Numbered from the stretch's first letter, positions 36,744-49,827 are shown. The stretch is 64,000 nt of DNA from Ignavibacteria bacterium (GCA_036262055.1 DATAJP010000002.1:1012177-1076176); one strand, 5' to 3'. Notes: generated from the letters alone by a model not told the origin. Numbers and translations: made by a program.

Positions 36744-36839
36744 TCAAATAAATATAAAGAACAGTACTTCTTATGCTATAAAAATAACTCCTTCCAATTT
36801 CAATTAAAATAGATATTTAAATATTTAACATAATCATGG

Positions 36840-36845
36840 TATAAT
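36840..36845 (+). promoter_or_regulatory. Possible -10 box of the conjugation cassette
   Basis: TATAAT at 36840-36845 lies 52 bp before the TTG start of the RHH gene. No convincing -35 is seen; the region upstream is very AT-rich. Weak evidence. Confidence 0.25.
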
Positions 36846-36897
36846 ATACTCAAGAAATAAATCAATCATTTTAGTAAACTTAAATGGAGACAACAAA

Positions 36898-37065
36898 TTG
36901 TATTCACCAAAAATAAGCGAAGACTTAATTCCAATCATCAAACGCAGGTCATTGGAAATTAAAAAACCAATGACTAAGATAGTTGATAAAATTCTGCGGT
37001 CAGCTTTAACTATTGAAAGTCAGTCTAATTCAAAATCCGCCGCAAATCTAAAAAACAACTTATGA
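36898..37065 (+). CDS. Small ribbon-helix-helix-like DNA-binding protein
   Basis: 55 residues from TTG 36898, with GGAG 8 bp upstream. The sequence opens with a beta-like SPKISEDLIPIIKRRS and PMTKIVDKILRSAL, the pattern of short RHH (Arc/MetJ-like) proteins found on plasmids and mobile elements. Its TGA overlaps the next ATG (ATGA at 37062), so the two are coupled. Probable autoregulator of the operon. Confidence 0.6.
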   Translation: MYSPKISEDLIPIIKRRSLEIKKPMTKIVDKILRSALTIESQSNSKSAANLKNNL

Positions 37066-37391
37066 ACAAATATCGAGTAGTACTTCCTTATCAGTATGCA
37101 ACATACGGAGAAAAAACAGGATTTGTATATGCAGAAGACCAAGATGAAGCTGAGGACATGGCTAACGAGGAAGATTACTTGCATGAAGAAGATTACAGAG
37201 ATTCTGATGATACAGGCTCCACTGAATATAATTACAGCGACATGACGATCGAGCTTTACGAAGAAGATGTTCCTGATCATCTCGTACCTTCGCGGAACAC
37301 TTATCATGAGTCTCATTCAGCATTCAATGTACCGGTATCAGTAAGTTCAACATTCCTTGAAGACCTGCCTGCGCTTCAACCTGAAGCATAG
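37062..37391 (+). CDS. Acidic protein of the conjugation cassette
   Basis: 109 residues, strongly acidic (EDQDEAEDMANEEDYLHEED). N-terminus YRVVLPYQYATYGEKTGFVYAEDQDEAE resembles small domains that read V...a..eeA; the rest looks disordered. No family known to me. Translationally coupled to the RHH gene and followed by a small hairpin at 37415. Could be an inhibitor, DNA mimic or adaptor of the conjugation enzymes; all are guesses. Confidence 0.6.
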   Translation: MNKYRVVLPYQYATYGEKTGFVYAEDQDEAEDMANEEDYLHEEDYRDSDDTGSTEYNYSDMTIELYEEDVPDHLVPSRNTYHESHSAFNVPVSVSSTFLEDLPALQPEA

Positions 37392-37414
37392 CTCATACTT
37401 AAATAAATAAAAGT

Positions 37415-37444
37415 GTTAACCTGTATTTATTAATCGCAGTTAAC
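37415..37444 (+). other. Hairpin between acidic protein and Ubl genes
   Basis: GTTAAC(C)TG pairs with CAGTTAAC across a 13-nt loop, with one bulge. There is no strong T-run; a weak terminator or processing site is possible. Confidence 0.3.
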
Positions 37445-37491
37445 TTATCTATTATTAAAACTCATTCAATAAAATCAAAAGGAAAACTAAA

Positions 37492-37767
37492 ATGTGGAAT
37501 TCAAACACAAACGGTTCAACACAGCCAGTAGAAACAAACCAGAAAACAAAAGTAGTATGCAATTCAAACGATTATGACGTAACAGGACTCTCAGGAGTTC
37601 AGTTAGCCGAAAGAGTCAAGCAGATCGCAAGAGAGAACTCAATTGGAAAGTTTGATATCTTCGACAGCAATAATAAGAATATCAGTCCTCAAGATATTCA
37701 AAATGGAAGCTTCGAAGGAGACCTGAGCATTATCAGATTCAATGTCGCCGCGGAAGTAAATATTTAA
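37492..37767 (+). CDS. Ubiquitin-like (beta-grasp) protein
   Basis: 91 residues with a good ribosome site (AAGGAAAAC). Residues 1-18 are polar and disordered; from KVVCNSNDYDVTGLSG there is a beta strand, a helix (VQLAERVKQIARENS), strand KFDIFDS and IIRFNVAAEVNI, consistent with a beta-grasp fold. The gene is followed by E2-, E1- and JAMM-like genes, which is the main reason to call it the modifier. It ends in EVNI and lacks the usual Gly-Gly tail, so either conjugation is non-canonical or JAMM processing exposes another residue. Confidence 0.65.
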   Translation: MWNSNTNGSTQPVETNQKTKVVCNSNDYDVTGLSGVQLAERVKQIARENSIGKFDIFDSNNKNISPQDIQNGSFEGDLSIIRFNVAAEVNI

Positions 37768-37775
37768 AAACATTT

Positions 37776-37871
37776 AAAGGGAAATCTTAATAAAATATTC
37801 CATAGTGTGTTTTTGCTCTTTATAAATGTGGATTAAAAGTTAAAAATGATCGGAATATGAGATTTCCCTTT
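37776..37871 (+). terminator. Long-stem terminator/attenuator between Ubl and E2 genes
   Basis: AAAGGGAAATCT (37776-37787) pairs perfectly with AGATTTCCCTTT (37860-37871), and inside it ATATTCC (37795-37801) pairs with GGAATAT (37852-37858). The stem is followed by TCTATTT. It lies 8 bp after the Ubl stop. It could cut expression so that the modifier is made in excess over the enzymes. Confidence 0.55.
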
Positions 37872-37896
37872 TCTATTTAGCAACTAAATAAAAAGT

Positions 37897-38784
37897 ATGT
37901 CAGAAAACATATCAACTAATGGGCATTCGCCAGGAAGTTTGGAGTTGTTCCCGCCAGCCTCCATTCAGACATTCATAAAAAGGATTAACAACTCTGATTT
38001 AAACAATCTAAATGAGGATAATACACCGGCGTGCAGCATCAAATCAACAGAAACACTTATCAATGAAATAGAATCCATTGTTAATCTTGACGAGTTCTAC
38101 GGCAGGCTCGAAGACTCAAAACAGGAAAAGGTAACAATAAAGGAAATCAAAATTGAATCTGATATAGACTTCTTAAAAAGTGTTAAGCAGCTGAAGACAG
38201 TATTCAAAAATGAATTACAGGTTATTGTAAATACAATTAGGGAAAAATATCAAACCGAGCTCTTTAACCTGCAGTCTATACGACAAAAAGAAACATTCGG
38301 ACAGCCGCTTATTAATCTTATCCAAAAATTAAACAGCGCAGGCTACTGTCTTGTAATGAAAGATTCAGTTGTGTGGGCATATAAATATTATGAAGATCCA
38401 TATGAAGTGACCATAGGTATTCAGGATACAGGTACTTCCGAAGAACAAGATGAATACATTGTCGAATATGACGAGCATGTCTGTAAGATAAAAAGCATTT
38501 ATGTCAATCTTATGCATCCTAAAATCACTTTAGGAACAATAATGCTTAATACGGAAGGAAGACATCCGAATGCCCAAGACGGAAACGGACTAACTACTGT
38601 ATGCAGCGGAGACCTCGAAGACAGAGAAATAAACCTTAATAATCCTGAAAGCTTAATTTCTCTTTTGAATGAAATCTGCCGGACATATGAAATAATGAAC
38701 CTTACATCTGCGTATGAACAGCCAAGAGGTACATATTCTAAAGTTGAAGGCGGAAGAGAGGCTGTATGGTCAAGCAATGAATAA
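37897..38784 (+). CDS. E2-like conjugating protein with N-terminal extension
   Basis: 295 residues. N-terminal tail has ELFPP (residues about 16-20), also found in the JAMM protein. Residues about 80-150 are coiled-coil-rich helices. The C-terminal part looks E2-like: IYVNLMHPKI, then RHPNAQDGNGLTTVCSGDL, in which Cys236 sits where E2/PRTRC-B-like proteins have their ICLG catalytic cysteine after an HP motif, followed by a helix NPESLISLLNEI. Fits an E2 or RWD-type conjugating enzyme that takes the modifier from E1. Assignment rests on motif order and context. Confidence 0.65.
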   Translation: MSENISTNGHSPGSLELFPPASIQTFIKRINNSDLNNLNEDNTPACSIKSTETLINEIESIVNLDEFYGRLEDSKQEKVTIKEIKIESDIDFLKSVKQLKTVFKNELQVIVNTIREKYQTELFNLQSIRQKETFGQPLINLIQKLNSAGYCLVMKDSVVWAYKYYEDPYEVTIGIQDTGTSEEQDEYIVEYDEHVCKIKSIYVNLMHPKITLGTIMLNTEGRHPNAQDGNGLTTVCSGDLEDREINLNNPESLISLLNEICRTYEIMNLTSAYEQPRGTYSKVEGGREAVWSSNE

Positions 38785-38833
38785 AACTATTAACAAGTTT
38801 TAAACCTAATTTAACAATTAAAAAAAAATAAAC

Positions 38834-39658
38834 ATGTCAGAAATAACATCAATAACAGAAGATATTTACAAAAGACAACTGAACTTTGCAGACTTTCCAA
38901 AGAAAAGCGCAATGGTAATTGGTCTCGGCGGAGTCGGAAGCTGGCTTGCCCTGGATTTGGCACTCATAGGAATAGGAACTCTTATTCTTATTGACCCTGA
39001 TAACATCGAAGCATCTAATCTAAACAGGACTTTCTTCAGGTTAAGTGATATAAATAGAAAGAAAACCGAAGTAATTGAAGAACAAATAAATGAAAGAAGA
39101 CCTGATACAATCATTATTACTATAAATGATTACTTCAATTCATCTCATTTAAATAAGTATGAAGTTGATTACATATTCGACTGCACGGATAATCTTGCAA
39201 CGCGCAGGATTATCGAAGACTTAAGAAATAAAGTATCTTTGGGATTAGAAGAAATTGATAAAATCCCATTTAACCTGCCGGATAATGAAGAAGGAACTAT
39301 ATACAGAATACCCGGTGCTCCTAGCATGACAATGACAGATGAAGAATACAGAAACATTCCGAATAATAAACACCGAACTCCCGCTGAGCTTCACGTAATT
39401 GAAATGAATAAATTACATATACCCTATTGCAAATGCGGATATGATGGAGTATTTGGTACCATTCTCATAAATGAATTTAACCGCGGCAGATGGGGTGAAG
39501 ACGGTTGTTATTCTATTGTTTCAAGTCTGTTTGCTACTCCTCAGATGCTTGCAGCAATGGCAGTTATTGAAATGCTGCTTGTAGATTGCAATCAAAATAT
39601 ATGCATTAACTTTAATATCAAACATCTTCTCAAGAACTATAAAGGAGACAAGCAATGA
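38834..39658 (+). CDS. E1-like ThiF/MoeB-family adenylating enzyme
   Basis: 274 residues. Rossmann ATP-binding signature GLGGVGS (30-36), acidic and Asn-Arg residues LIDPDNIEASNLNR (52-65), Lys76/77 and DCTDN (116-120) are intact. Cys199/Cys201 in HIPYCKCGYDG and Cys225 are candidates for the thioester site. ThiF-type enzymes adenylate the C-terminus of ubiquitin-like proteins. Overlaps the JAMM gene start (39655). Confidence 0.88.
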   Translation: MSEITSITEDIYKRQLNFADFPKKSAMVIGLGGVGSWLALDLALIGIGTLILIDPDNIEASNLNRTFFRLSDINRKKTEVIEEQINERRPDTIIITINDYFNSSHLNKYEVDYIFDCTDNLATRRIIEDLRNKVSLGLEEIDKIPFNLPDNEEGTIYRIPGAPSMTMTDEEYRNIPNNKHRTPAELHVIEMNKLHIPYCKCGYDGVFGTILINEFNRGRWGEDGCYSIVSSLFATPQMLAAMAVIEMLLVDCNQNICINFNIKHLLKNYKGDKQ

Positions 39659-40398
39659 AAAACATATTTTTGAATGATGATAGCAGTAACTTAACTAGAT
39701 CAGACACAAAATCCGGCAATAAAGAGCTCTTCCCTCCACCTGATAAGCCGAAAGACTCCGGTTGGGATTCAGATATTAACATCATCCGTTCCGTCAAAGT
39801 TATTATACCAGTAAAACTCTTGATAATATGCAACCACATCTCAAGAATGGTTGATGATAACGAATTTTCTATTGTAACGGACATACTGAGTAAAGAAAAC
39901 TTAAATGAACTAAAGCTTGCAGAGTATTATTACATTCCAAAACAGAAAGTAACATCAGGTTCTATCGATTACATGCCGGATAAGTTCAGCCATAATGTTG
40001 TAATACACAGACATCCGGACGGACTTAACAGTTTTTCAGGAACAGACCATAGCTATATTAACCAAAACTTTGAACTAAGCCTTCTCTTTACTAAAAAAGA
40101 TGGATTTGTTAACGGCATTTATAACATGAAAGTAGAAGAAAGCATTATTCCATTACCTGTTGAATCAATTATAGACTACGGAATTGGATCAATTGACATA
40201 TCAAACATTGAATGCGCAGGCATAATCGAAAAAGAATTCAGCATAAAATCTGACAGAAGAAGAGATTACAAGCACAGAAAAGATAATTTCAGAAGCTCAT
40301 ACATAGATAATGATGATGTTATGTGGGAAATAATGGAACTTAAAAGCAGAATGGACATGATGGAAGAAGCATTGATGAGCGGTGAAATTATCGGATAA
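39655..40398 (+). CDS. JAMM/MPN+ metalloprotease-like protein (deubiquitinase-like)
   Basis: 247 residues. The zinc motif H-x-H-x7-S-x2-D is exact: His118-Arg-His120 ... Ser128-Gly-Thr-Asp131 (HRHPDGLNSFSGTD), with Glu70 in DNEFSIV a likely general base. N-terminal tail has ELFPP (24-28). A C-terminal helical part (about 200-247) is charged. In bacterial systems such enzymes process the Ubl precursor or remove it from targets. Translationally coupled to E1. Confidence 0.82.
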   Translation: MKNIFLNDDSSNLTRSDTKSGNKELFPPPDKPKDSGWDSDINIIRSVKVIIPVKLLIICNHISRMVDDNEFSIVTDILSKENLNELKLAEYYYIPKQKVTSGSIDYMPDKFSHNVVIHRHPDGLNSFSGTDHSYINQNFELSLLFTKKDGFVNGIYNMKVEESIIPLPVESIIDYGIGSIDISNIECAGIIEKEFSIKSDRRRDYKHRKDNFRSSYIDNDDVMWEIMELKSRMDMMEEALMSGEIIG

Positions 40399-40810: not shown

Positions 40811-40837
40811 AAAATGCCCGTTTAAAATGGGCATTTT
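40811..40837. terminator. Bidirectional terminator
   Basis: AAAATGCCC and GGGCATTTT form a perfect 9-bp stem around a 9-nt loop, with A/T runs on both flanks. It ends the minus-strand block at 40836 and the plus-strand cassette. Confidence 0.8.
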
Positions 40838-43800
40838 ACAAGTATCTTTCTTCATCATCAATCTTTTCTGCTTTAATATATTTATTTAAATAATTAATAT
40901 TTTCATTTGCCCAAGTTCTTATTATATCATTTTTATGGTTTGATAAATTTTCATAAAGAATTAGTTCAGATCTAAGTAATGGAACAAGTGATCCAGTCCA
41001 AGAATACGAACCCATATTTGCACTTATTTCATTCAATACCTTTCTATCACTTCCAAATTCATTTATAAATTGCAAAGTAAAGGAATGCCATTCGTTTCGT
41101 TTTTTATTACTAAAAATGGGCAAATATCTTGCTATTCTCTGTGGTGCTAATGGAATATTTTTTTTACACCAATCCAAAACTAATTCATTATTACTCTTAA
41201 ACAACAAACCATTCTTATTGTCAAAATTTTTTTGAAGGTCTTCAGAAAAATTATCATTAAATTCAATTCTCGAGCCAATTAAATGCATTAAATGATAGTA
41301 TGTCATAAAATCTGAGAGAAGAGCTTGAGATAATACTGGCCAAATTTCTGTAAAATATTTAGGTAATAAATGTGTAAGAATATTTTGAATATAAAGTTCA
41401 AAATTATATTTATAATCTTCTTGACTACACATATCAATAATTTCATTCATTATGTGTATAGCAAATAAAGTATCATTATCTTCTTCTAAAATTTTAACTG
41501 TATACTGTTCCCAATAGTGCTCTATCATATTGAGATTATGACTACCAATTAATCCTTTTTTAGACAGTATTTCTTTAATTCCAGTTTTGTATTGAGCCCA
41601 ATTTTGTTTATTCCTAAATGCCAAATTAGAATAAATTGATAACGCAATTAATGCTCCCAACAAATTAAACTCTGATATTTTTTTTAATAATTTATAATTT
41701 GTTTCAAATTTTAATTTTTCAATACTTCTACTATATCGAAAACTAAGAAGTAGTTTAAGATTGTTTAACTTATTGGCTAAATTTATTAAGTTATCAAATA
41801 TTTCTTCATCTACATATGTTGAACTGCTGATATCAAACGAATACTTTGCAATTTTATCATCATTGATAAACTTTAAAATTATATCTTTCACAATTTCTTT
41901 ATTTTCAATCCCGATTAAAAATCCAATAAATACAATTATATTTAAATTTTCATTAGAATTTTTAAAATAATTAATTGATTTTTCTATAAAAACATTTCGA
42001 TTTTCTGAATTCAGTAGTGTCCCCAATTTTTCACCGAAATAATATCCATTATGTTGATAATCATTGTAAATAATATCAAAAGAGTATATGAGTTTGTTAA
42101 AATTATTACCAAATTCAATTGCTATTTTCTCGGAAGTTTGCTTTAGTTTTTCAGTATAACTATCATTCTCTCCAATTTCATCTTCAATTGCAGAACTTTT
42201 AATAAAAAGTTTATATTTTTCTAGAATATCTTGTGGGGTTAACTTTAAAATAAAATCTGACAATGTTGTCTTTTGTTCTGGTGTTAATATATCTTTCTCA
42301 TATTTCAAGGATAATTGTAAATCATTTCTTGCCTCATTCCATAAGAAATTTTTCTCGGTTGCAATTGTTTTAATTATTGGTATAATAAGATCAAACAAAC
42401 CGTGACTTATTAAGCCTCTTATTGAATTTGAAAGTATATTTTCTGCCTCGTTGGAAAACTCATTTTTTTCTTGATAAATAAGATATAATAAATTGAGACA
42501 TTTTATCCAATAATCATCACGCTCTTTAAATGTTGGTTTAAAATCAATTAATGATTTCGAAGAACCTTGATTTTCGGCACCGACGTCACGTGTAAAATAG
42601 TGAGTATGAAGTGCAGACTTTAATGCATCTACTGCGATTTTCTTGTAGTCAATATCACGCGAATAAGAATATTTGATAATATTAAATCGCTCCTCAAGAG
42701 TTGCCTCTGTTGCCGGCAAAATTACATGAAATCTTTTTAAAAACTCACCGGTTGCATTATTTGCCCAACTTTCATTTTCAGCTACAGCAAAATTTAGTAA
42801 CACCTTCATTCCATCACTAAAAGTTTCTTTCCTCCATACAATTTTTTCTAAAGCCCAAATCAAATTCCTTCTTCCTTTATCAATTTTAAATAAATTTTCT
42901 TTACTCATATTTCCAAATATTCTAACTAATGCATTGGTACATGCTGATGGGTTCACTTCAACTAAAGAGCGGAAGAGGCGTGAACCCAGTTCAGTATTAA
43001 GGACTTCCGCTTTTCCAAAAGGGGCTTGTTCTCCACATAATTTTTCAACGAATTCTTTCGTCTGTTCTAAAAAATCTAAATATCTTAATTGATCACATAG
43101 AGCTGAGCCGAGATTATTACTCGTTATATCCAATAATATATCCTCTAAAATATCTGGTTGGACAGTTTCCCACCATTTAGCAGCTAATGTAATAGCTAAT
43201 GGTTTAGGTTTTAAAAAAATATACCTACCTCCTTGTTCTATCAAACCTTTTTCTTTATATTTTACACAGGTTTCATAAAATTTTTTCTTGCAAGTTTCAT
43301 CGTCAAAATTTAGACCGCAAAGTCTTTTGTTACACGCTACAAAATTCATTTCAACTTGTCGATCTTCACTAAATCCAAGTTTATCAAAAATTGCTAGCGT
43401 TTTTAAAACCTCAAACTCATCATTATTTATATCACTTCTTCCAAATATAAGTTTTCTTAAAAGACTATCATTATTTATTCTTCCGATATTGGAATCCTCT
43501 TTTAAATATTGGTCACTTAATAAAACAGCTAGAAGTGGAAATCCCTTCACAAATTCTTTGATCTTATCTACATCTTGATTATTTAGATCCGGGAATAAAT
43601 CTTTGATAATTTCTGTTATTATATTATCTAAATTTTCCGGTTTAATTAATATTGAATTTATTTCATCAATACTATCATATCTTTCAGCCGTTTCGTAATC
43701 TATTGAGATTAGATTAAGCTTACTATCGATTCTTTTAATTTCGCCTTGCAATTTTTGATGCAAAGTTAGTTCACAGTTATCTACAATAAGAATGCCTTTT

Positions 43801-44702
43801 AAACCATTATCTATTAATTTAGTTACAAAGCCATGTATATCCGTTCCAGGAATTAATGCATCAAAATAAATTATTGAACTTTTTAAAAGTTGTGTTTGTA
43901 AATTGTCATTAGAATTATTTTTAAAAGATTCATAAATAAGTCGAGTTTTACCTAATCCTGATAATCCATTTATTCTAATAGTCTGTCTAGTCTTTGCGAC
44001 TGAATTTTGTAATTCAGTTACTTTTTTTTGAAGAAATGAGTTGCTTCGAAAAATATTCTGAAAATCTGCTCGCATTCCTAATATATTCATTGATTTGATA
44101 CCATCAGGAATTCTGATACCTACACGGCAATCATATAAATAATTAACTGCTTGGAAATATTGATTTGCCCAATCAGCGATTTTATTTGCATCATATACAT
44201 CCACTTTTATGTCATTATAATTTTTAAAATCTACATCTTTAAAGGCTTCTTTTACTTTTTCAATTCTTTTCTGTATAGCATTCTTTGTATAATTTTTATT
44301 TATAAATAAAATATAGGAACCATCTTTGTCAATTACATCTTTAATCCGTTTTTTTATTGTAGTAGTTAGATTATAAACTTTACCATTTACATTTATTTTA
44401 CTTATTTTATCGGAAACCTCTAATTTGCACTGTTCAGGGCTCATTGGAGATGCTTTCGATTGAAAAATTGTTAATGGAGAGTTAATATAATTACTATTTT
44501 TATACCACTCATTTTTATCTGTTTCTTCCCACTCTATTCTTGCATCCTCTCCTCCATCTGCGACTGTTAAATTTAATGGAACTGTAACAGCTGATAGTGG
44601 AATCTCTGATTTTATTGCTTCTAATTTTAAAAGGAGTTTTAGAAGACTTACAAATTGAAAAGGGTTTAAACCTTCAATATGTTTAAAGGTTATTGGTTCC
44701 AT
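40836..44702 (-). CDS. Nuclease-STAND NTPase protein (Avs-like)
   Basis: 1288 residues. Residues about 40-90 show a PD-(D/E)xK-like pattern: ADGGEDARIEW (Glu52, Asp53) followed by TIFQSKA (Gln81-Ser-Lys83). A STAND-type P-loop follows with Walker A GLSGLGKT (246-253) and Walker B ILIVDNC (about 304-310). The remaining 900 residues are helical repeats. This nuclease, NTPase, repeat-sensor order is that of Avs antiviral proteins, which recognise phage proteins and cleave DNA. It starts 4 bp after the helicase stop, so it belongs to the same operon. Which phage protein is sensed is unknown. Confidence 0.75.
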   Translation of the reverse strand: MEPITFKHIEGLNPFQFVSLLKLLLKLEAIKSEIPLSAVTVPLNLTVADGGEDARIEWEETDKNEWYKNSNYINSPLTIFQSKASPMSPEQCKLEVSDKISKINVNGKVYNLTTTIKKRIKDVIDKDGSYILFINKNYTKNAIQKRIEKVKEAFKDVDFKNYNDIKVDVYDANKIADWANQYFQAVNYLYDCRVGIRIPDGIKSMNILGMRADFQNIFRSNSFLQKKVTELQNSVAKTRQTIRINGLSGLGKTRLIYESFKNNSNDNLQTQLLKSSIIYFDALIPGTDIHGFVTKLIDNGLKGILIVDNCELTLHQKLQGEIKRIDSKLNLISIDYETAERYDSIDEINSILIKPENLDNIITEIIKDLFPDLNNQDVDKIKEFVKGFPLLAVLLSDQYLKEDSNIGRINNDSLLRKLIFGRSDINNDEFEVLKTLAIFDKLGFSEDRQVEMNFVACNKRLCGLNFDDETCKKKFYETCVKYKEKGLIEQGGRYIFLKPKPLAITLAAKWWETVQPDILEDILLDITSNNLGSALCDQLRYLDFLEQTKEFVEKLCGEQAPFGKAEVLNTELGSRLFRSLVEVNPSACTNALVRIFGNMSKENLFKIDKGRRNLIWALEKIVWRKETFSDGMKVLLNFAVAENESWANNATGEFLKRFHVILPATEATLEERFNIIKYSYSRDIDYKKIAVDALKSALHTHYFTRDVGAENQGSSKSLIDFKPTFKERDDYWIKCLNLLYLIYQEKNEFSNEAENILSNSIRGLISHGLFDLIIPIIKTIATEKNFLWNEARNDLQLSLKYEKDILTPEQKTTLSDFILKLTPQDILEKYKLFIKSSAIEDEIGENDSYTEKLKQTSEKIAIEFGNNFNKLIYSFDIIYNDYQHNGYYFGEKLGTLLNSENRNVFIEKSINYFKNSNENLNIIVFIGFLIGIENKEIVKDIILKFINDDKIAKYSFDISSSTYVDEEIFDNLINLANKLNNLKLLLSFRYSRSIEKLKFETNYKLLKKISEFNLLGALIALSIYSNLAFRNKQNWAQYKTGIKEILSKKGLIGSHNLNMIEHYWEQYTVKILEEDNDTLFAIHIMNEIIDMCSQEDYKYNFELYIQNILTHLLPKYFTEIWPVLSQALLSDFMTYYHLMHLIGSRIEFNDNFSEDLQKNFDNKNGLLFKSNNELVLDWCKKNIPLAPQRIARYLPIFSNKKRNEWHSFTLQFINEFGSDRKVLNEISANMGSYSWTGSLVPLLRSELILYENLSNHKNDIIRTWANENINYLNKYIKAEKIDDEERYL

Positions 44703-44706
44703 TATT

Positions 44707-46824
44707 TTATGTTATTACTTTTATTTTTTCCAAAAATAATTTTGTGTTTTGAAAATCAAAATAATTATCTCTTAATAGATTTTTCTGATATTTAATTGGT
44801 AAATATTTTCCCCACTTAGAAAAATTTAGTAATGACGAATTAGCCAAAAGTTTTTCCTCAATTTTAGGTTCTATATTATTTAGTAGTACACATAATCTTT
44901 TAATGAGGTTATTAAAATCTTTATAATCAATAGAAATCTCAAAACTACTACTATTTTCATTATATATTGAATTAATTTCTGATTCATTTAATAAAAATTG
45001 CAAACTTTTATTGACTCTAGTTCCCTGAAATGAATATAAAAGTGTTTTATCATGTTTAGCAATAACTGGTCTATCTGTTGCAAAATTTTCTATCTTAAAA
45101 TGAGAAAATTCTTTTCGAAATATTTGTAAAATATCTTTACAAGTATCATTTAACTCTTCATAAGAAATTTCAGTGAATAAAATTTCTAACATCTTTTCTC
45201 TTATCTTTGGATGAATATTTCCACCAGTTCCTAAGAATAAGGGTTTTTTCCCATCTTTAGCTGGTATAACTTCAACTTTATTTGATTTCAGATCTACATC
45301 AACAATTTTCCATACCTTCGCTGCTAAAAATATATTCTCATTTATTTGCAATTGAGGCGTAAATGGTATTTCACCTATAGACTTTCCACTATTAAGAACT
45401 TTAAGTTGTAATTCAGTTTTAAACATACTGTAAAAATCACGTGAATTCGCTATTTGTTCACCTGCAACTCCAATAATTAACTCATTCTGTAAAAGTTCAA
45501 GTAAATCAGTTTTAATTAGTTCATCTATAATTTCACTTATTTCAGTTTCAGTAATTTTCTGAAATGAAGGATTTGATAAAAGAAGTGATATTAAATCAGG
45601 TTTTGAACATGCGGATAATTGTTTAACAATTGAAAGAGCTTGATGTAATAAAATATCATAAGGTTTTTCCGAAAAATGGACAGGTTCAACAAAACCTTCT
45701 TTATATAATAACCAACAGGCTAAAGACTGTAATAAATTCCATTTATCAGTTGAATATAGTATTAAATTTCCAATTTCACCTTCTCTCCTGCCACTTCTTC
45801 CAACCCTTTGGATAAGAGAAGATACCGAATGAGCTGAATCTATTTGAACGACTTTATCAATTGTTCCAATATCAATTCCCAATTCTAAAGTTGAGGTACA
45901 AGATATACAAAAATTATTTCTTTGATTATTTTTAGCAAAATGTTCTGTGTATTCTCTTAGTTCTTTATCTACTGAAGAATGATGAGAAAAATAATAAAGA
46001 TGGCCTTTTACTTTTTCAGCAATTTTTTTAAGTTTCACCGCAATTTCTTCTGCTCTACCTCTGCTATTAGGAAATATCAATGCTTTATTATCTTTTGTCT
46101 CAAGATATAAATCTTTAATTAAATCTATTGGTAATTCCATAGTATCAGATTCGAAATATTTAAATTGAGCTTCCAATTCACGGGATGTTTTATCGAGTAA
46201 AATTATAGTATTATCTTCATCACATGTTATTTTTTTCGCCTCAACATAATCTCCAATAGTTGCTGAGAGTCCTACTACATTGAACTTATTATTAATTTGT
46301 TTTAGTCTAAAAATAAGTGAGCGTAACTGCGTTCCTCTGTCAGTTCCTAAAAAAGAATGAATTTCATCAATAACAATAAATTTTAAATTTGAGAATAAAT
46401 GTTTTACATTGTAAGGAGCATTTACAAGCATTGCTTCTAGTGATTCGGGTGTAATCAAAACAATATCTCTTGGATTTTTTAAAAGTTTTTGTTTTAAAGT
46501 TTTATTTGCTTCACCATGCCATTTCGTTACATCAATATCTAAATACTTACAAAGTTCTTCAATCCGAACGAATTGATCATTTATAAGAGCAATTAGAGGC
46601 GAAATATAAAGAACTTGAACACCCTTTTCTTGAAAATTCACCTTTGATATGATTGGTAAAAATGCAGCTTCAGTTTTTCCTGAAGCAGTTCTTGATGCTA
46701 AAATATAATTACTATTAGTAGAAATTATTTTAGTTATAGCGGCAAGTTGAATTGGACGTAATGTTTCCCATTTTTTATCATAAATATATTTACGGATAAG
46801 AGGAGATAATAAGGTAAGCGGCAT
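44707..46824 (-). CDS. Lhr-like DEAD/DEAH-box helicase
   Basis: 705 residues. SF2 motifs: Walker A RTASGKT (45-51), DEIH (153-156), SAT (187-189), and motif VI QRVGRSGRREG. The family style (RPIQLAAI..., VGLSATIGDY) is Lhr/BrxHI-like. It starts within the ATPase stop (one-base overlap at 46824). Operon context with DUF2791 and TerB-C points to a DNA-processing defence complex. Confidence 0.85.
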   Translation of the reverse strand: MPLTLLSPLIRKYIYDKKWETLRPIQLAAITKIISTNSNYILASRTASGKTEAAFLPIISKVNFQEKGVQVLYISPLIALINDQFVRIEELCKYLDIDVTKWHGEANKTLKQKLLKNPRDIVLITPESLEAMLVNAPYNVKHLFSNLKFIVIDEIHSFLGTDRGTQLRSLIFRLKQINNKFNVVGLSATIGDYVEAKKITCDEDNTIILLDKTSRELEAQFKYFESDTMELPIDLIKDLYLETKDNKALIFPNSRGRAEEIAVKLKKIAEKVKGHLYYFSHHSSVDKELREYTEHFAKNNQRNNFCISCTSTLELGIDIGTIDKVVQIDSAHSVSSLIQRVGRSGRREGEIGNLILYSTDKWNLLQSLACWLLYKEGFVEPVHFSEKPYDILLHQALSIVKQLSACSKPDLISLLLSNPSFQKITETEISEIIDELIKTDLLELLQNELIIGVAGEQIANSRDFYSMFKTELQLKVLNSGKSIGEIPFTPQLQINENIFLAAKVWKIVDVDLKSNKVEVIPAKDGKKPLFLGTGGNIHPKIREKMLEILFTEISYEELNDTCKDILQIFRKEFSHFKIENFATDRPVIAKHDKTLLYSFQGTRVNKSLQFLLNESEINSIYNENSSSFEISIDYKDFNNLIKRLCVLLNNIEPKIEEKLLANSSLLNFSKWGKYLPIKYQKNLLRDNYFDFQNTKLFLEKIKVIT

Positions 46825-48134
46825 TATATTTCTTCTATACTATCTAAGTTTTCTTGTGGTCTTTCATCTTTAATTTCAATTTCACCAAATAATTTTTTCT
46901 TATCAATTTCAGGATTTTGTCTAATTATACTTAATATATTTAAAAAATCTCTAATAACTTCACGTGGAGTTAAAAATTCATGAGCACCCGGCTTATTGAA
47001 CATCTCTTCCATAAATAGATGAACCTCCGCATCAGAAACATCAAGTGTAATATTATAATTAAATTCAAAGACCTCCTTCAATTTATTCAATAACACAAAA
47101 ACTTGATTATTATCTAAAGGCATTAATCTTATAACTGGTTGAGCAAAATCCCTAATTTCTACAGTTTCAAATTTATTTGTTTCTAATCGCGATTTCAAAG
47201 CTTGATAACTAAACAATCCTCTTCGTTCATTTTCTAGAAATTCTTTGGTTCCAGCAAAATTAATAAAGAAATTAGAAATTTTACCTTGAAAACAATCATT
47301 ATAAATAGATAAAATTTTTTCATAATTCTTTTCTCTCATAACCGAAGTTGAAATCTTATACAAATTTATAGCTTCATCAAGATTTATCATAAAACCATTA
47401 TAACCAATGTTAACAAACAATTTGCAAAAATTCTTTAGCATATCATAATAGTTAATATCATTTATTATTTCACGAACTCCTAAATCTTGTCTTGCCTCAG
47501 TTTTAGTTCTGTATTCTCCTTTCAACCATTTCAGTGCATTTTTTTTTAACTGTTCATTATCTGTTATGTAACCTTCATAATATTTCATTACTACAACTCC
47601 AAAATCAAAACCTCCGGTATCAGTAATTTCATTTATTGTTTTAAGAATATTATCATTAATTAAATTTAAATACTTTTCATTTCTTATCTCTGATAAATGG
47701 ATATTATTTTCTCTTGCTGTTTTTTCTACAACATTAACAATCCATTTTTCTAATAACGTAGGAAGCGCACCTCCTTCAGGTTTCGTTTGAATTGAAATAT
47801 TATCTATTATTGCGGAATACAATATTACACCTTTAAAATCATTGGAATACAATCTATTATCTGGCGTAAAATCTGCATTTGCTACTACAAACTTTTGTTT
47901 CAAAGCAACTGTATTTAATAAATGAAGCATAAAAGATTTTCCAGAACCAAAATCACCGATCCAAAACTTTACGATACTATGCCCATTTTTTACATCCTCT
48001 AACGCTTGTACAAATGCGTCAATCTCGGAGGAACGTCCAACTGTAATATGTTGAACTCCTATTTTAGGAACCACACCTCCTAATAAAGAATTTATAATTG
48101 CAGTTGCTTCTTTTGGCTTAATATTAATTGCCAT
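46824..48134 (-). CDS. BrxD/DUF2791-like P-loop ATPase
   Basis: 436 residues. Walker A GDFGSGKS (60-67), Walker B around MINLDEAINLY, a RHIT-like segment GVQHITVGR near residue 26. This is the DUF2791 type, the BrxD ATPase of BREX type 2 and of other helicase pairs. Start ATG at 48134, overlapping the previous gene by 11 bp. Likely loads or activates the Lhr-like helicase downstream. Confidence 0.82.
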   Translation of the reverse strand: MAINIKPKEATAIINSLLGGVVPKIGVQHITVGRSSEIDAFVQALEDVKNGHSIVKFWIGDFGSGKSFMLHLLNTVALKQKFVVANADFTPDNRLYSNDFKGVILYSAIIDNISIQTKPEGGALPTLLEKWIVNVVEKTARENNIHLSEIRNEKYLNLINDNILKTINEITDTGGFDFGVVVMKYYEGYITDNEQLKKNALKWLKGEYRTKTEARQDLGVREIINDINYYDMLKNFCKLFVNIGYNGFMINLDEAINLYKISTSVMREKNYEKILSIYNDCFQGKISNFFINFAGTKEFLENERRGLFSYQALKSRLETNKFETVEIRDFAQPVIRLMPLDNNQVFVLLNKLKEVFEFNYNITLDVSDAEVHLFMEEMFNKPGAHEFLTPREVIRDFLNILSIIRQNPEIDKKKLFGEIEIKDERPQENLDSIEEI

Positions 48135-49827
48135 TTAACTTTATTTTTTGATAATAATTTTGGTTTAAAGAGTAATTTACTTCTAAATCTTCAATTAAAA
48201 TATCATCCAAAAATTCATAACAGGATTCATTTATGCTATCTATCAATTGATTTTTAAAGACTCCATTGTTTTTTGAAAATGCCTCAATCTCATTAACCGA
48301 AAGATTAAACGAATTTTTACTGAATAATTCAATTAACTGTATTTGAATAGGATTTAACTCAATTTCGTCAATAAATAACTTTTGAAGATTATTTTCAGTT
48401 TTTATAATTATATCTAATTCCATTTCTTCACTATTTATTTGTTTGATATTAATGCTCGCATTGCTATCTTCATAGTCATCCTGTAAAAATTCATTTAATA
48501 ATTCTACTGTATTTGAATGCTGACTTTTAACATTATCTATTATTGCTTTATCAAGTTTAATTTTTTTTCGTTTCGGTAAATAAATTTTCTGAATTTGGTT
48601 AATAGCCACATCTAAATTTTTAGTCTTAATTAATTCGCTAACTATTTTTTCAAATTCATGAATTTGTTCAGTATTTTTAAAAAGCGTTTTTTGAATAGTT
48701 TTTGTTAGCTTCTTATTGTCAAATTTATCAGACTTTAAATCATAATATAAATAATGAATATAGAATTTTAAGGATTCAGTATTATCATATTTAGAAATGA
48801 ATTTTGAAGCTTCAAAATAAATATTTTCAACTGAAGAGTTTTTTTTATTAAGTTTAACTAATTCATGAATTTTATCAATAAAGTTTTCTTTTGAGTTCTC
48901 ATTAAAATTAATTGTTAGATGCTCAAGTTTTAATTTCCATCTATTAACATTCTGTATATTTAATTCAATCTCCGTTGCTTCATCCGGTTGGCTTATAGAA
49001 TCAGACGATTCTTTAATTATCTCGTTAACTATTGAGCCTATCCGACTTTCAAATAAGTCTTTTAACTTTGGTTCATAGTATGAAAAATCAGTAGATATTT
49101 TTCGTTTATGATTATACGATTCTCTTAACTTACTCTCTGCTCGTTTAAATATCGTTAAAAAAATATCTGATTCTATTTTTTCTTTTGCCCAAATATATTC
49201 ATAATCAGACCAATAAGTCGCATAAGTTGGGGTATAATTAGTTAATTCCTGTTTGAAGAAATCCACTTCCATTTGTATTGATGAATCATTTCTTTTTAAT
49301 TTATTGTTAAGTGATTTAATTGTTAACAAATAAAGTTTTATCGTTTCTATGCAACAGCCTTCAATAGATAAAAACACATTATTTGGATCCCAAAATTTAT
49401 TTAGCCATGAAACTTCTTGATTACTTAATCCTAATTTTTGTTTATATCTTTTACCTAACTTTAATTCATTATAATTATCTTCATCAATTTTTTTACTATA
49501 AACAGCTTCAGTATTTGGATTATTTTCATTTGAACTGTATGAAATTTGTGGCGGATCAATTTTATAATCAATAGTTACTTCAATGATAGATTTATCTTTA
49601 AATTTATCTTTAGATAATTGGGGCTCTTGCACTTGTGAATTCTTTAATAAATGTTGATTTGTAGCATTATAAGCATTAGGAATTTTATTAATACTATTTG
49701 TTTTATTAGTAGACTTTTTATTGAAATTCTTAATAAATATATAAGTTAAGAATGATATTATAGCAATAATTACGATAAAACTCATAGAAATTAGTAAAAT
49801 ATAAAATAATTTTTCAGTTAGCGGCAC
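48124..49827 (-). CDS. TerB-C-domain membrane-anchored protein
   Basis: 567 residues. One N-terminal TM helix (about 9-33). The C-terminal region (NPIQIQLIELFSKN...SVNEIEAFSKNNG...NESCYEFLDDILIEDLE) matches the TerB-C pattern seen in tellurite/stress-response associated proteins. Middle part helical and Lys/Asn-rich. TerB-N/C proteins are known to travel with DUF2791 ATPases and helicases. First gene of the block; the TM segment may tether the complex. Confidence 0.65.
   Translation of the reverse strand: MPLTEKLFYILLISMSFIVIIAIISFLTYIFIKNFNKKSTNKTNSINKIPNAYNATNQHLLKNSQVQEPQLSKDKFKDKSIIEVTIDYKIDPPQISYSSNENNPNTEAVYSKKIDEDNYNELKLGKRYKQKLGLSNQEVSWLNKFWDPNNVFLSIEGCCIETIKLYLLTIKSLNNKLKRNDSSIQMEVDFFKQELTNYTPTYATYWSDYEYIWAKEKIESDIFLTIFKRAESKLRESYNHKRKISTDFSYYEPKLKDLFESRIGSIVNEIIKESSDSISQPDEATEIELNIQNVNRWKLKLEHLTINFNENSKENFIDKIHELVKLNKKNSSVENIYFEASKFISKYDNTESLKFYIHYLYYDLKSDKFDNKKLTKTIQKTLFKNTEQIHEFEKIVSELIKTKNLDVAINQIQKIYLPKRKKIKLDKAIIDNVKSQHSNTVELLNEFLQDDYEDSNASINIKQINSEEMELDIIIKTENNLQKLFIDEIELNPIQIQLIELFSKNSFNLSVNEIEAFSKNNGVFKNQLIDSINESCYEFLDDILIEDLEVNYSLNQNYYQKIKLNGN

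What the first reader, a model, noticed from the sequence alone, without database searches (positions are those of the whole stretch)
36898..40398. Compact ubiquitin-like conjugation cassette in a mobile-looking locus
Seen: six consecutive plus-strand genes encode an RHH-like protein, an acidic protein, a beta-grasp-like protein, an E2-like protein with a cysteine in HP...TVCSGDL, a ThiF/E1 enzyme with intact GxGGVGS and DCTDN motifs, and a protein with an exact JAMM H-x-H-x7-S-x2-D motif. Known: bacterial Ubl-E2-E1-JAMM sets exist (for example Bil and related operons, CBASS Cap2/Cap3, PRTRC elements). Inference: the RHH and acidic partners, the gene order Ubl, E2, E1, JAMM and the E2's long coiled N-terminus set it apart from the layouts I know, so it may be a new subtype, perhaps antiviral.
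Basis: partly seen in the sequence, partly recalled or inferred. Interest (0 to 1): 0.92.

Follow-up and report, generated by a model that had tools for sequence, protein, structure and literature searches.

The report
Lineage-specific bacterial ubiquitin-like conjugation cassette
A group of bacteria (Ignavibacteria) carries a compact, often duplicated set of genes that looks like a complete miniature ubiquitin system (tag, activator, conjugator, remover); it resembles known bacterial ubiquitin-like pathways but differs from each of those tested, and it sits beside DNA-conflict genes, so it offers a new branch for testing how such tagging is used in bacteria.

Summary
Window 36898-40398 encodes RHH, acidic protein, beta-grasp Ubl, E2, E1 and JAMM in one operon. 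The cassette is not unique: a second full copy lies about 44 kb downstream in the same genome. The JAMM family occurs at 17 places in 11 of 44 genomes of the order, up to three per genome, almost always in the same order, plus one complete copy in a MAG labelled Sphingobacteriia. All six genes of the two home copies have dN far below dS.

Shared features: E2 with HPN-x9/10-C-x-G (catalytic Cys236 in 15/15); an E1 with intact adenylation residues but no invariant cysteine; a Ubl ending ...RFN(V/A)AA instead of GG; a terminator-like hairpin between Ubl and E2 in 14/14 loci; a cassette promoter with TGGTATAATA (10/10). Many relatives are followed by DUF2958 or by Mu-Gam, an OB-like protein and DUF932, with restriction-modification genes nearby.

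Most likely it performs reversible Ubl conjugation in DNA-level conflict. The target is unknown; antiviral and mobile-element roles remain open. It fails the PRTRC and CBASS definitions tested, and the Bub fusion. Bil could be tested only by gene order, recalled from memory. I file it as a new variant of a known kind.

The parts
36837..36846 (+). promoter-like extended -10 (TGGTATAATA) upstream of the operon
   Evidence: Present in 10 of 10 cassette upstream regions. In 12 genomes the exact 16-mer TCTGGTATAATATNTA occurs 7 times: 5 lie at known cassettes, and a sixth follows the same upstream genes as another cassette but its contig ends. The two home copies carry a variant of that 16-mer. Three copies of the 10-mer in the window, 0.41 expected.
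36898..37065 (+). RHH-like small DNA-binding protein (55 aa, TTG start), overlaps the next gene by 4 nt
   Evidence: ORF. Homologues start the cassette in both deep clades. One relative has weak CopG_antitoxin/CcdA similarity (E 0.03-0.08). RHH fold not tested further.
37062..37391 (+). acidic small protein (109 aa), YxxxxPYxYxxYG...VYAE
   Evidence: Conserved in every cassette with its 5' end available, sometimes in two copies. No family hit.
37492..37767 (+). Ubl, beta-grasp, ends RFNVAA-EVNI; invariant Cys23
   Evidence: AF2 pLDDT about 87 over the core; nearly all top Foldseek hits are ubiquitin-like or related beta-grasp domains. Family alignment.
37776..37871 (+). terminator-like hairpin (14-bp stem, arms 37776-37789 and 37858-37871, then TCTATTT) between Ubl and E2
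   Evidence: Fold z -3.2. A comparable hairpin occurs in 14 of 14 loci with different stem sequences; no comparably strong one in the acidic-Ubl gap.
37897..38784 (+). E2-like protein: variable N-terminus, 59-residue helix (89-147), E2-like domain with H223-P224-N225 and C236
38834..39658 (+). E1 (ThiF/MoeB-type adenylation domain), R14-Q15, GxGGxGS, D54, R65, K77, D119 conserved; no invariant Cys; overlaps JAMM by 4 nt
39655..40398 (+). JAMM/Prok-JAB isopeptidase: E70, H118-R-H120-P-x6-S128-x2-D131

Best explanation
The six genes form one regulated operon for reversible conjugation of a ubiquitin-like protein. The JAMM enzyme trims the Ubl where it carries extra residues (EVNI in the window) to a ...NVAA end (inferred). 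The E1, a ThiF/MoeB-type adenylating enzyme, makes Ubl-AMP and hands it to Cys236 of the E2 without a conserved E1 cysteine (inferred). The E2, whose long helix probably positions it or a partner, places the Ubl on a target, with the HPN asparagine as the usual catalyst for lysine attack (inferred). The JAMM enzyme removes it again. The RHH protein probably represses the private promoter, and the hairpin after Ubl lets the tag be made in excess over the enzymes (inferred). The system acts in DNA-level conflict, on phage or mobile-element DNA processes. Candidate targets are phage proteins or the DNA-binding proteins encoded next to relatives of the cassette.
For: Gene set and order conserved in two deep clades. 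Family search of the order. Catalytic residues of E1, E2 and JAMM conserved. Ubl beta-grasp model. E2 profile match to a UQ_con-type E2. dN far below dS. Promoter and hairpin conserved. Neighbours DUF2958 (7 proteins), Mu Gam (6), DUF932 (3), restriction-modification, BrxC/D, PD-Lambda-4 and integrases.
Against: No conjugate, target or phenotype is known. The E2 fold search is not significant. The Ubl lacks the C-terminal glycine of most conjugated Ubls. Neighbours vary between loci, and the window copy itself lacks Gam, DUF932 and DUF2958. Association with defence or mobile genes was not tested against random regions.
Confidence: 0.72

Rival explanations
1. Antiviral effector system working like Bil: on infection the Ubl is conjugated to a phage structural protein and spoils the virions.
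For: Defence-type surroundings: restriction-modification genes near many copies, PD-Lambda-4_A and BrxC/D beside the window copy. Multiple diverged copies per genome. Complete Ubl-E2-E1-JAMM set.
Against: Gene order differs from Bil as I know it (Ubl-E2-DUB-E1). No Bil-like sequence hit for the E2 or JAMM in the PDB chains. DUF2958, Gam and DUF932 do not belong to the Bil layout I know.
Confidence: 0.35
2. Mobile-element module like PRTRC: the Ubl tags proteins that protect, anneal or segregate incoming or excised DNA (Gam-like, OB-like, DUF932, DUF2958).
For: Gam-OB-DUF932 or DUF2958 directly downstream in the same orientation at most loci with enough downstream sequence. PRTRC of Bacteroidota also sits beside DUF932, and in two of three loci read beside SSB. 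Second home copy lies between integrases.
Against: No cassette homologue in 72,556 plasmid or 50,697 phage records or in viral contigs. The window copy lacks those genes. Copies mostly pair by genome in the tree, not as expected for rampant transfer.
Confidence: 0.35
3. Not a protein-conjugation system: the Ubl is a sulfur or other carrier and the E2-like protein is a scaffold.
For: E1 has no invariant cysteine and is closest to ThiF/MoeB. The Ubl ends in AA, not GG. The E2 fold is not shown.
Against: E2 Cys236 and HPN are invariant in 15 of 15. JAMM active site intact. No rhodanese or biosynthesis genes recognised nearby.
Confidence: 0.12

Closest known systems
PRTRC system (TIGR03736/TIGR03737; row 6d of Iyer et al. 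2006, PMC1779556)
   Same: Stand-alone Ubl, E2-like and E1 genes; neighbourhood with DUF932 in Bacteroidota
   Different: PRTRC_B lacks the His of HPN (FFN...VCMG) and does not align by profile; PRTRC ThiF has a conserved PSCSL cysteine; partners E and F absent; Ubl ends GTKG
Bil (type I/II bacterial ISG15-like) operons
   Same: Ubl, E2, E1 and JAMM, four separate genes
   Different: Order here Ubl-E2-E1-JAMM with RHH and acidic genes; no Bil hit. Bil details are from my own knowledge, since the papers were not available
Bub operons (PDB 9ea4/9eae BubCD-BubB)
   Same: Related E1 domain (E 3e-11); E2-fold BubB is a weak Foldseek hit
   Different: BubCD is one chain of 458 residues matched in its middle by the E1 profile, so extra domains are fused; here E1 is a separate gene, with its own JAMM
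CBASS Cap2/Cap3 (type II)
   Same: E1/E2/JAB chemistry; weak E1 similarity (1.7e-8)
   Different: Separate E2 and E1 genes, own Ubl, no CD-NTase recognised
Canonical UQ_con E2 of the same genome (G000:C3:191442-191990)
   Same: HPN-x9-C-x-G spacing, profile P 0.0069
   Different: No adjacent E1 or Ubl found in the 8 kb read; chromosomal neighbour is a JAB-LysM protein

Membership tests
Reversible Ubl conjugation systems (general) | beta-grasp modifier | tested here: met
   AF2 model and Foldseek hits nearly all ubiquitin-like or related beta-grasp domains, none below E 1e-3
Reversible Ubl conjugation systems (general) | E1 adenylation domain | tested here: met
   ThiF 2.2e-28; motifs invariant
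Reversible Ubl conjugation systems (general) | E2 with UBC fold and catalytic Cys | tested here: inconclusive
   Cys and HPN invariant, profile P 0.0069 to a UQ_con E2; fold search not significant
Reversible Ubl conjugation systems (general) | JAMM isopeptidase motif | tested here: met
   E70, H118, H120, S128, D131 invariant; Prok-JAB hit by 13 of 13
Reversible Ubl conjugation systems (general) | covalent conjugates on proteins | not testable with these tools
   needs biochemistry
PRTRC | PRTRC_B E2 (TIGR03737) | tested here: not met
   no hit in own genome; hhalign prob 0.1
PRTRC | partners PRTRC_E and PRTRC_F | tested here: not met
   no NCBIfam hit for any cassette protein of the window above a cut-off, and none to PRTRC_E or PRTRC_F
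PRTRC | PRTRC ThiF (TIGR03736) | tested here: not met
   28 bits against a cut-off of 144.75
Bil | gene order Ubl-E2-DUB-E1 | tested here: not met
   order Ubl-E2-E1-JAMM in every complete locus; Bil order recalled, not read
Bil | sequence relation to BilA-D and antiphage activity | not testable with these tools
   no Bil model or paper at hand; no assay
Bub | E1 fused in one chain with further domains (BubCD) | tested here: not met
   E1 is a separate 213-274 aa protein
CBASS type II | E1-E2 fusion Cap2 and a CD-NTase | tested here: not met
   separate genes; PADLOC hits of the cassette are the E1 only; no CD-NTase among the 25 commonest families of each neighbour tally

The most novel reading that the evidence does not exclude
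A separate branch of bacterial ubiquitin-like pathway that uses an Ala-Ala-ended modifier, an E1 without a catalytic cysteine that loads a classical HPN E2 directly, and an in-operon attenuator, and that tags DNA-end or single-strand DNA-binding proteins of mobile elements.
Probability: 0.22. Interest if true: 0.82.

Novelty: new variant of a known kind. Interest (0 to 1): 0.62.

Why it matters
Bacterial ubiquitin-like systems are few and bear on the origin of the eukaryotic one. This set has all four activities as separate, compact genes, with a classical E2 signature and clear departures (AA-ended Ubl, cysteine-poor E1, conserved hairpin between tag and enzymes). It is small enough to reconstitute, and its neighbours give testable candidate targets.

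Tried and rejected
Pfam, NCBIfam, PADLOC and PHROGs for E2, Ubl, RHH and acidic proteins: no significant hits. Viral-contig scans and tblastn against phages and plasmids: nothing. PDB searches with E2 and JAMM profiles: nothing. Foldseek with the whole E2 model: inconclusive, probably because of the long helix and low-confidence N-terminus. hhalign of E2 against Prok-E2_B: P 0.09 only, though His and Cys align. Membership in PRTRC rejected. A regulon sharing the promoter: most pattern matches with up to one mismatch lie outside known cassettes; those read are mostly scattered or chance sites. Weak E2 hits L004/L005 cover part of the helical N-terminal region and were left aside. Bil and Bub primary papers were not held.

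Full report
Observation. RHH/acidic and E1/JAMM overlap by 4 nt; gaps of about 100, 129 and 49 nt separate acidic-Ubl, Ubl-E2 and E2-E1. E1 is a clear ThiF domain (2.2e-28). JAMM is weak alone but all 13 family members hit Prok-JAB. E2, Ubl, RHH and acidic proteins have no significant family hit.

Family. The window is G000:C2:1012177-1076176. A second full cassette lies at C2 about 1093170-1096621, i.e. L007 15171-18622, with 56-71% identity per protein. A JAMM profile finds 17 places in 11 of 44 genomes of the order, one of them a short piece at a contig end. A scan of 84,980 species genomes with two strict JAMM patterns finds 13 loci: titles read Ignavibacteria/Ignavibacteriae, three 'Bacteroidetes' contigs that are the same as members of G000's own family, and one 'Sphingobacteriia' MAG contig with the full six genes (L052; possible misbinning or transfer). 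More distant relatives would be missed by such patterns. An E2 profile search of 391 genomes of the class found only the order's members. Order [RHH]-acidic-Ubl-E2-E1-JAMM holds wherever the contig allows, except that the Ubl gene of L038 was not detected.

Selection and history. dN is 0.23-0.35 against saturated or near-saturated dS for the two home copies, and low dN/dS recurs in four other pairs. A tree of E2+E1+JAMM has two well-supported clades plus L009; copies from one genome mostly pair, which favours duplication within lineages over frequent transfer.

Parts and mechanism. The Ubl model has the order strand-strand-helix-strand-helix-strand and nearly all top PDB matches are ubiquitin-like or related beta-grasp domains, including UFM1 and the bacterial Ubls 8tyx/8tyz, none below E 1e-3. 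All Ubls end in N(V/A)AA with 0-4 further residues. Cys23 of Ubl and Cys236 of E2 are invariant; no E1 cysteine is. E2 carries HPN-x9 (x10 in the window)-C-x-G in 15 of 15. The genome also encodes a UQ_con-type E2 (PF00179 5.8e-8; UBE2N-like in the PDB) whose family shares the spacing; hhalign aligns the two with HPN and Cys in register, P 0.0069, without correction for the few comparisons made. The fold search itself is not significant. E1 keeps R14-Q15, the glycine motif, D54, R65, K77 and D119. That Ubl-AMP passes straight to the E2 is inferred.

Regulation. TGGTATAATA precedes all 10 cassettes examined. A strong hairpin followed mostly by a T-rich run separates Ubl from E2 in 14 of 14 loci; stems differ in sequence, and all 14 score above the 15 shuffles of the same gap (two of them, L007 and L032, narrowly), while most acidic-Ubl gaps do not. 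This suggests more Ubl than enzyme transcripts; read-through was not measured.

Surroundings. In the window the cassette is followed on the other strand by PD-Lambda-4_A (4.1e-54), a helicase and a BrxC/D ATPase. Elsewhere DUF2958 (7 proteins), Mu Gam (6) and DUF932 (3) follow, and type I/II restriction-modification genes are common. No random-region control was run. PRTRC in Bacteroidota lies beside DUF932 too, and in two of three loci beside SSB, so the two systems share context but not sequence.

Known systems. Iyer et al. 2006 (PMC1779556) describe operon types 6a-6e; 6d (which I identify with PRTRC) has an E2 without the classical His, unlike this one. PRTRC models fail here. CBASS and Bub fusions are absent. 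Bil was compared only by recalled gene order. Verdict: a real, conserved, lineage-restricted variant of bacterial Ubl conjugation; function in DNA-level conflict likely, antiviral versus mobile-element role undecided.

Noticed in passing
G000:C3:190363-191990 (L001/L135): A UQ_con-type ubiquitin-conjugating E2 (183 aa) next to a JAB-LysM protein, with no E1 or Ubl gene found in the 8 kb read; the E2 was found in 20 of 245 genomes sampled from the class, all 20 in the home family.
   Followed up: partly
window 40836-49827 (-): PD-Lambda-4_A homologue, helicase, BrxC/D-type ATPase and a 567-aa protein: a defence-like cluster convergent with the cassette.
   Followed up: partly
L007 2-18622 and L008 6577-7605: The second cassette shares an island with a cytosine methylase, a Vsr-like gene and DEAD helicase genes, flanked by two phage-type integrases.
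   Followed up: partly
L029 3729-5993; L030 3624-5905; L037 5022-7254: Conserved Mu-Gam, unknown about 180 aa (possibly OB-fold, unverified) and DUF932 genes directly after the cassette, like an extended operon.
   Followed up: partly
G410:C17:22436 (L087): Promoter motif with the same upstream genes as the L033 cassette at a contig end: probably a fourth copy in that genome.
   Followed up: no
window 9573-34684: Long run of metal-efflux genes (RND pumps, P-type ATPase, heavy-metal-binding proteins), judged by eye from the translations.
   Followed up: no
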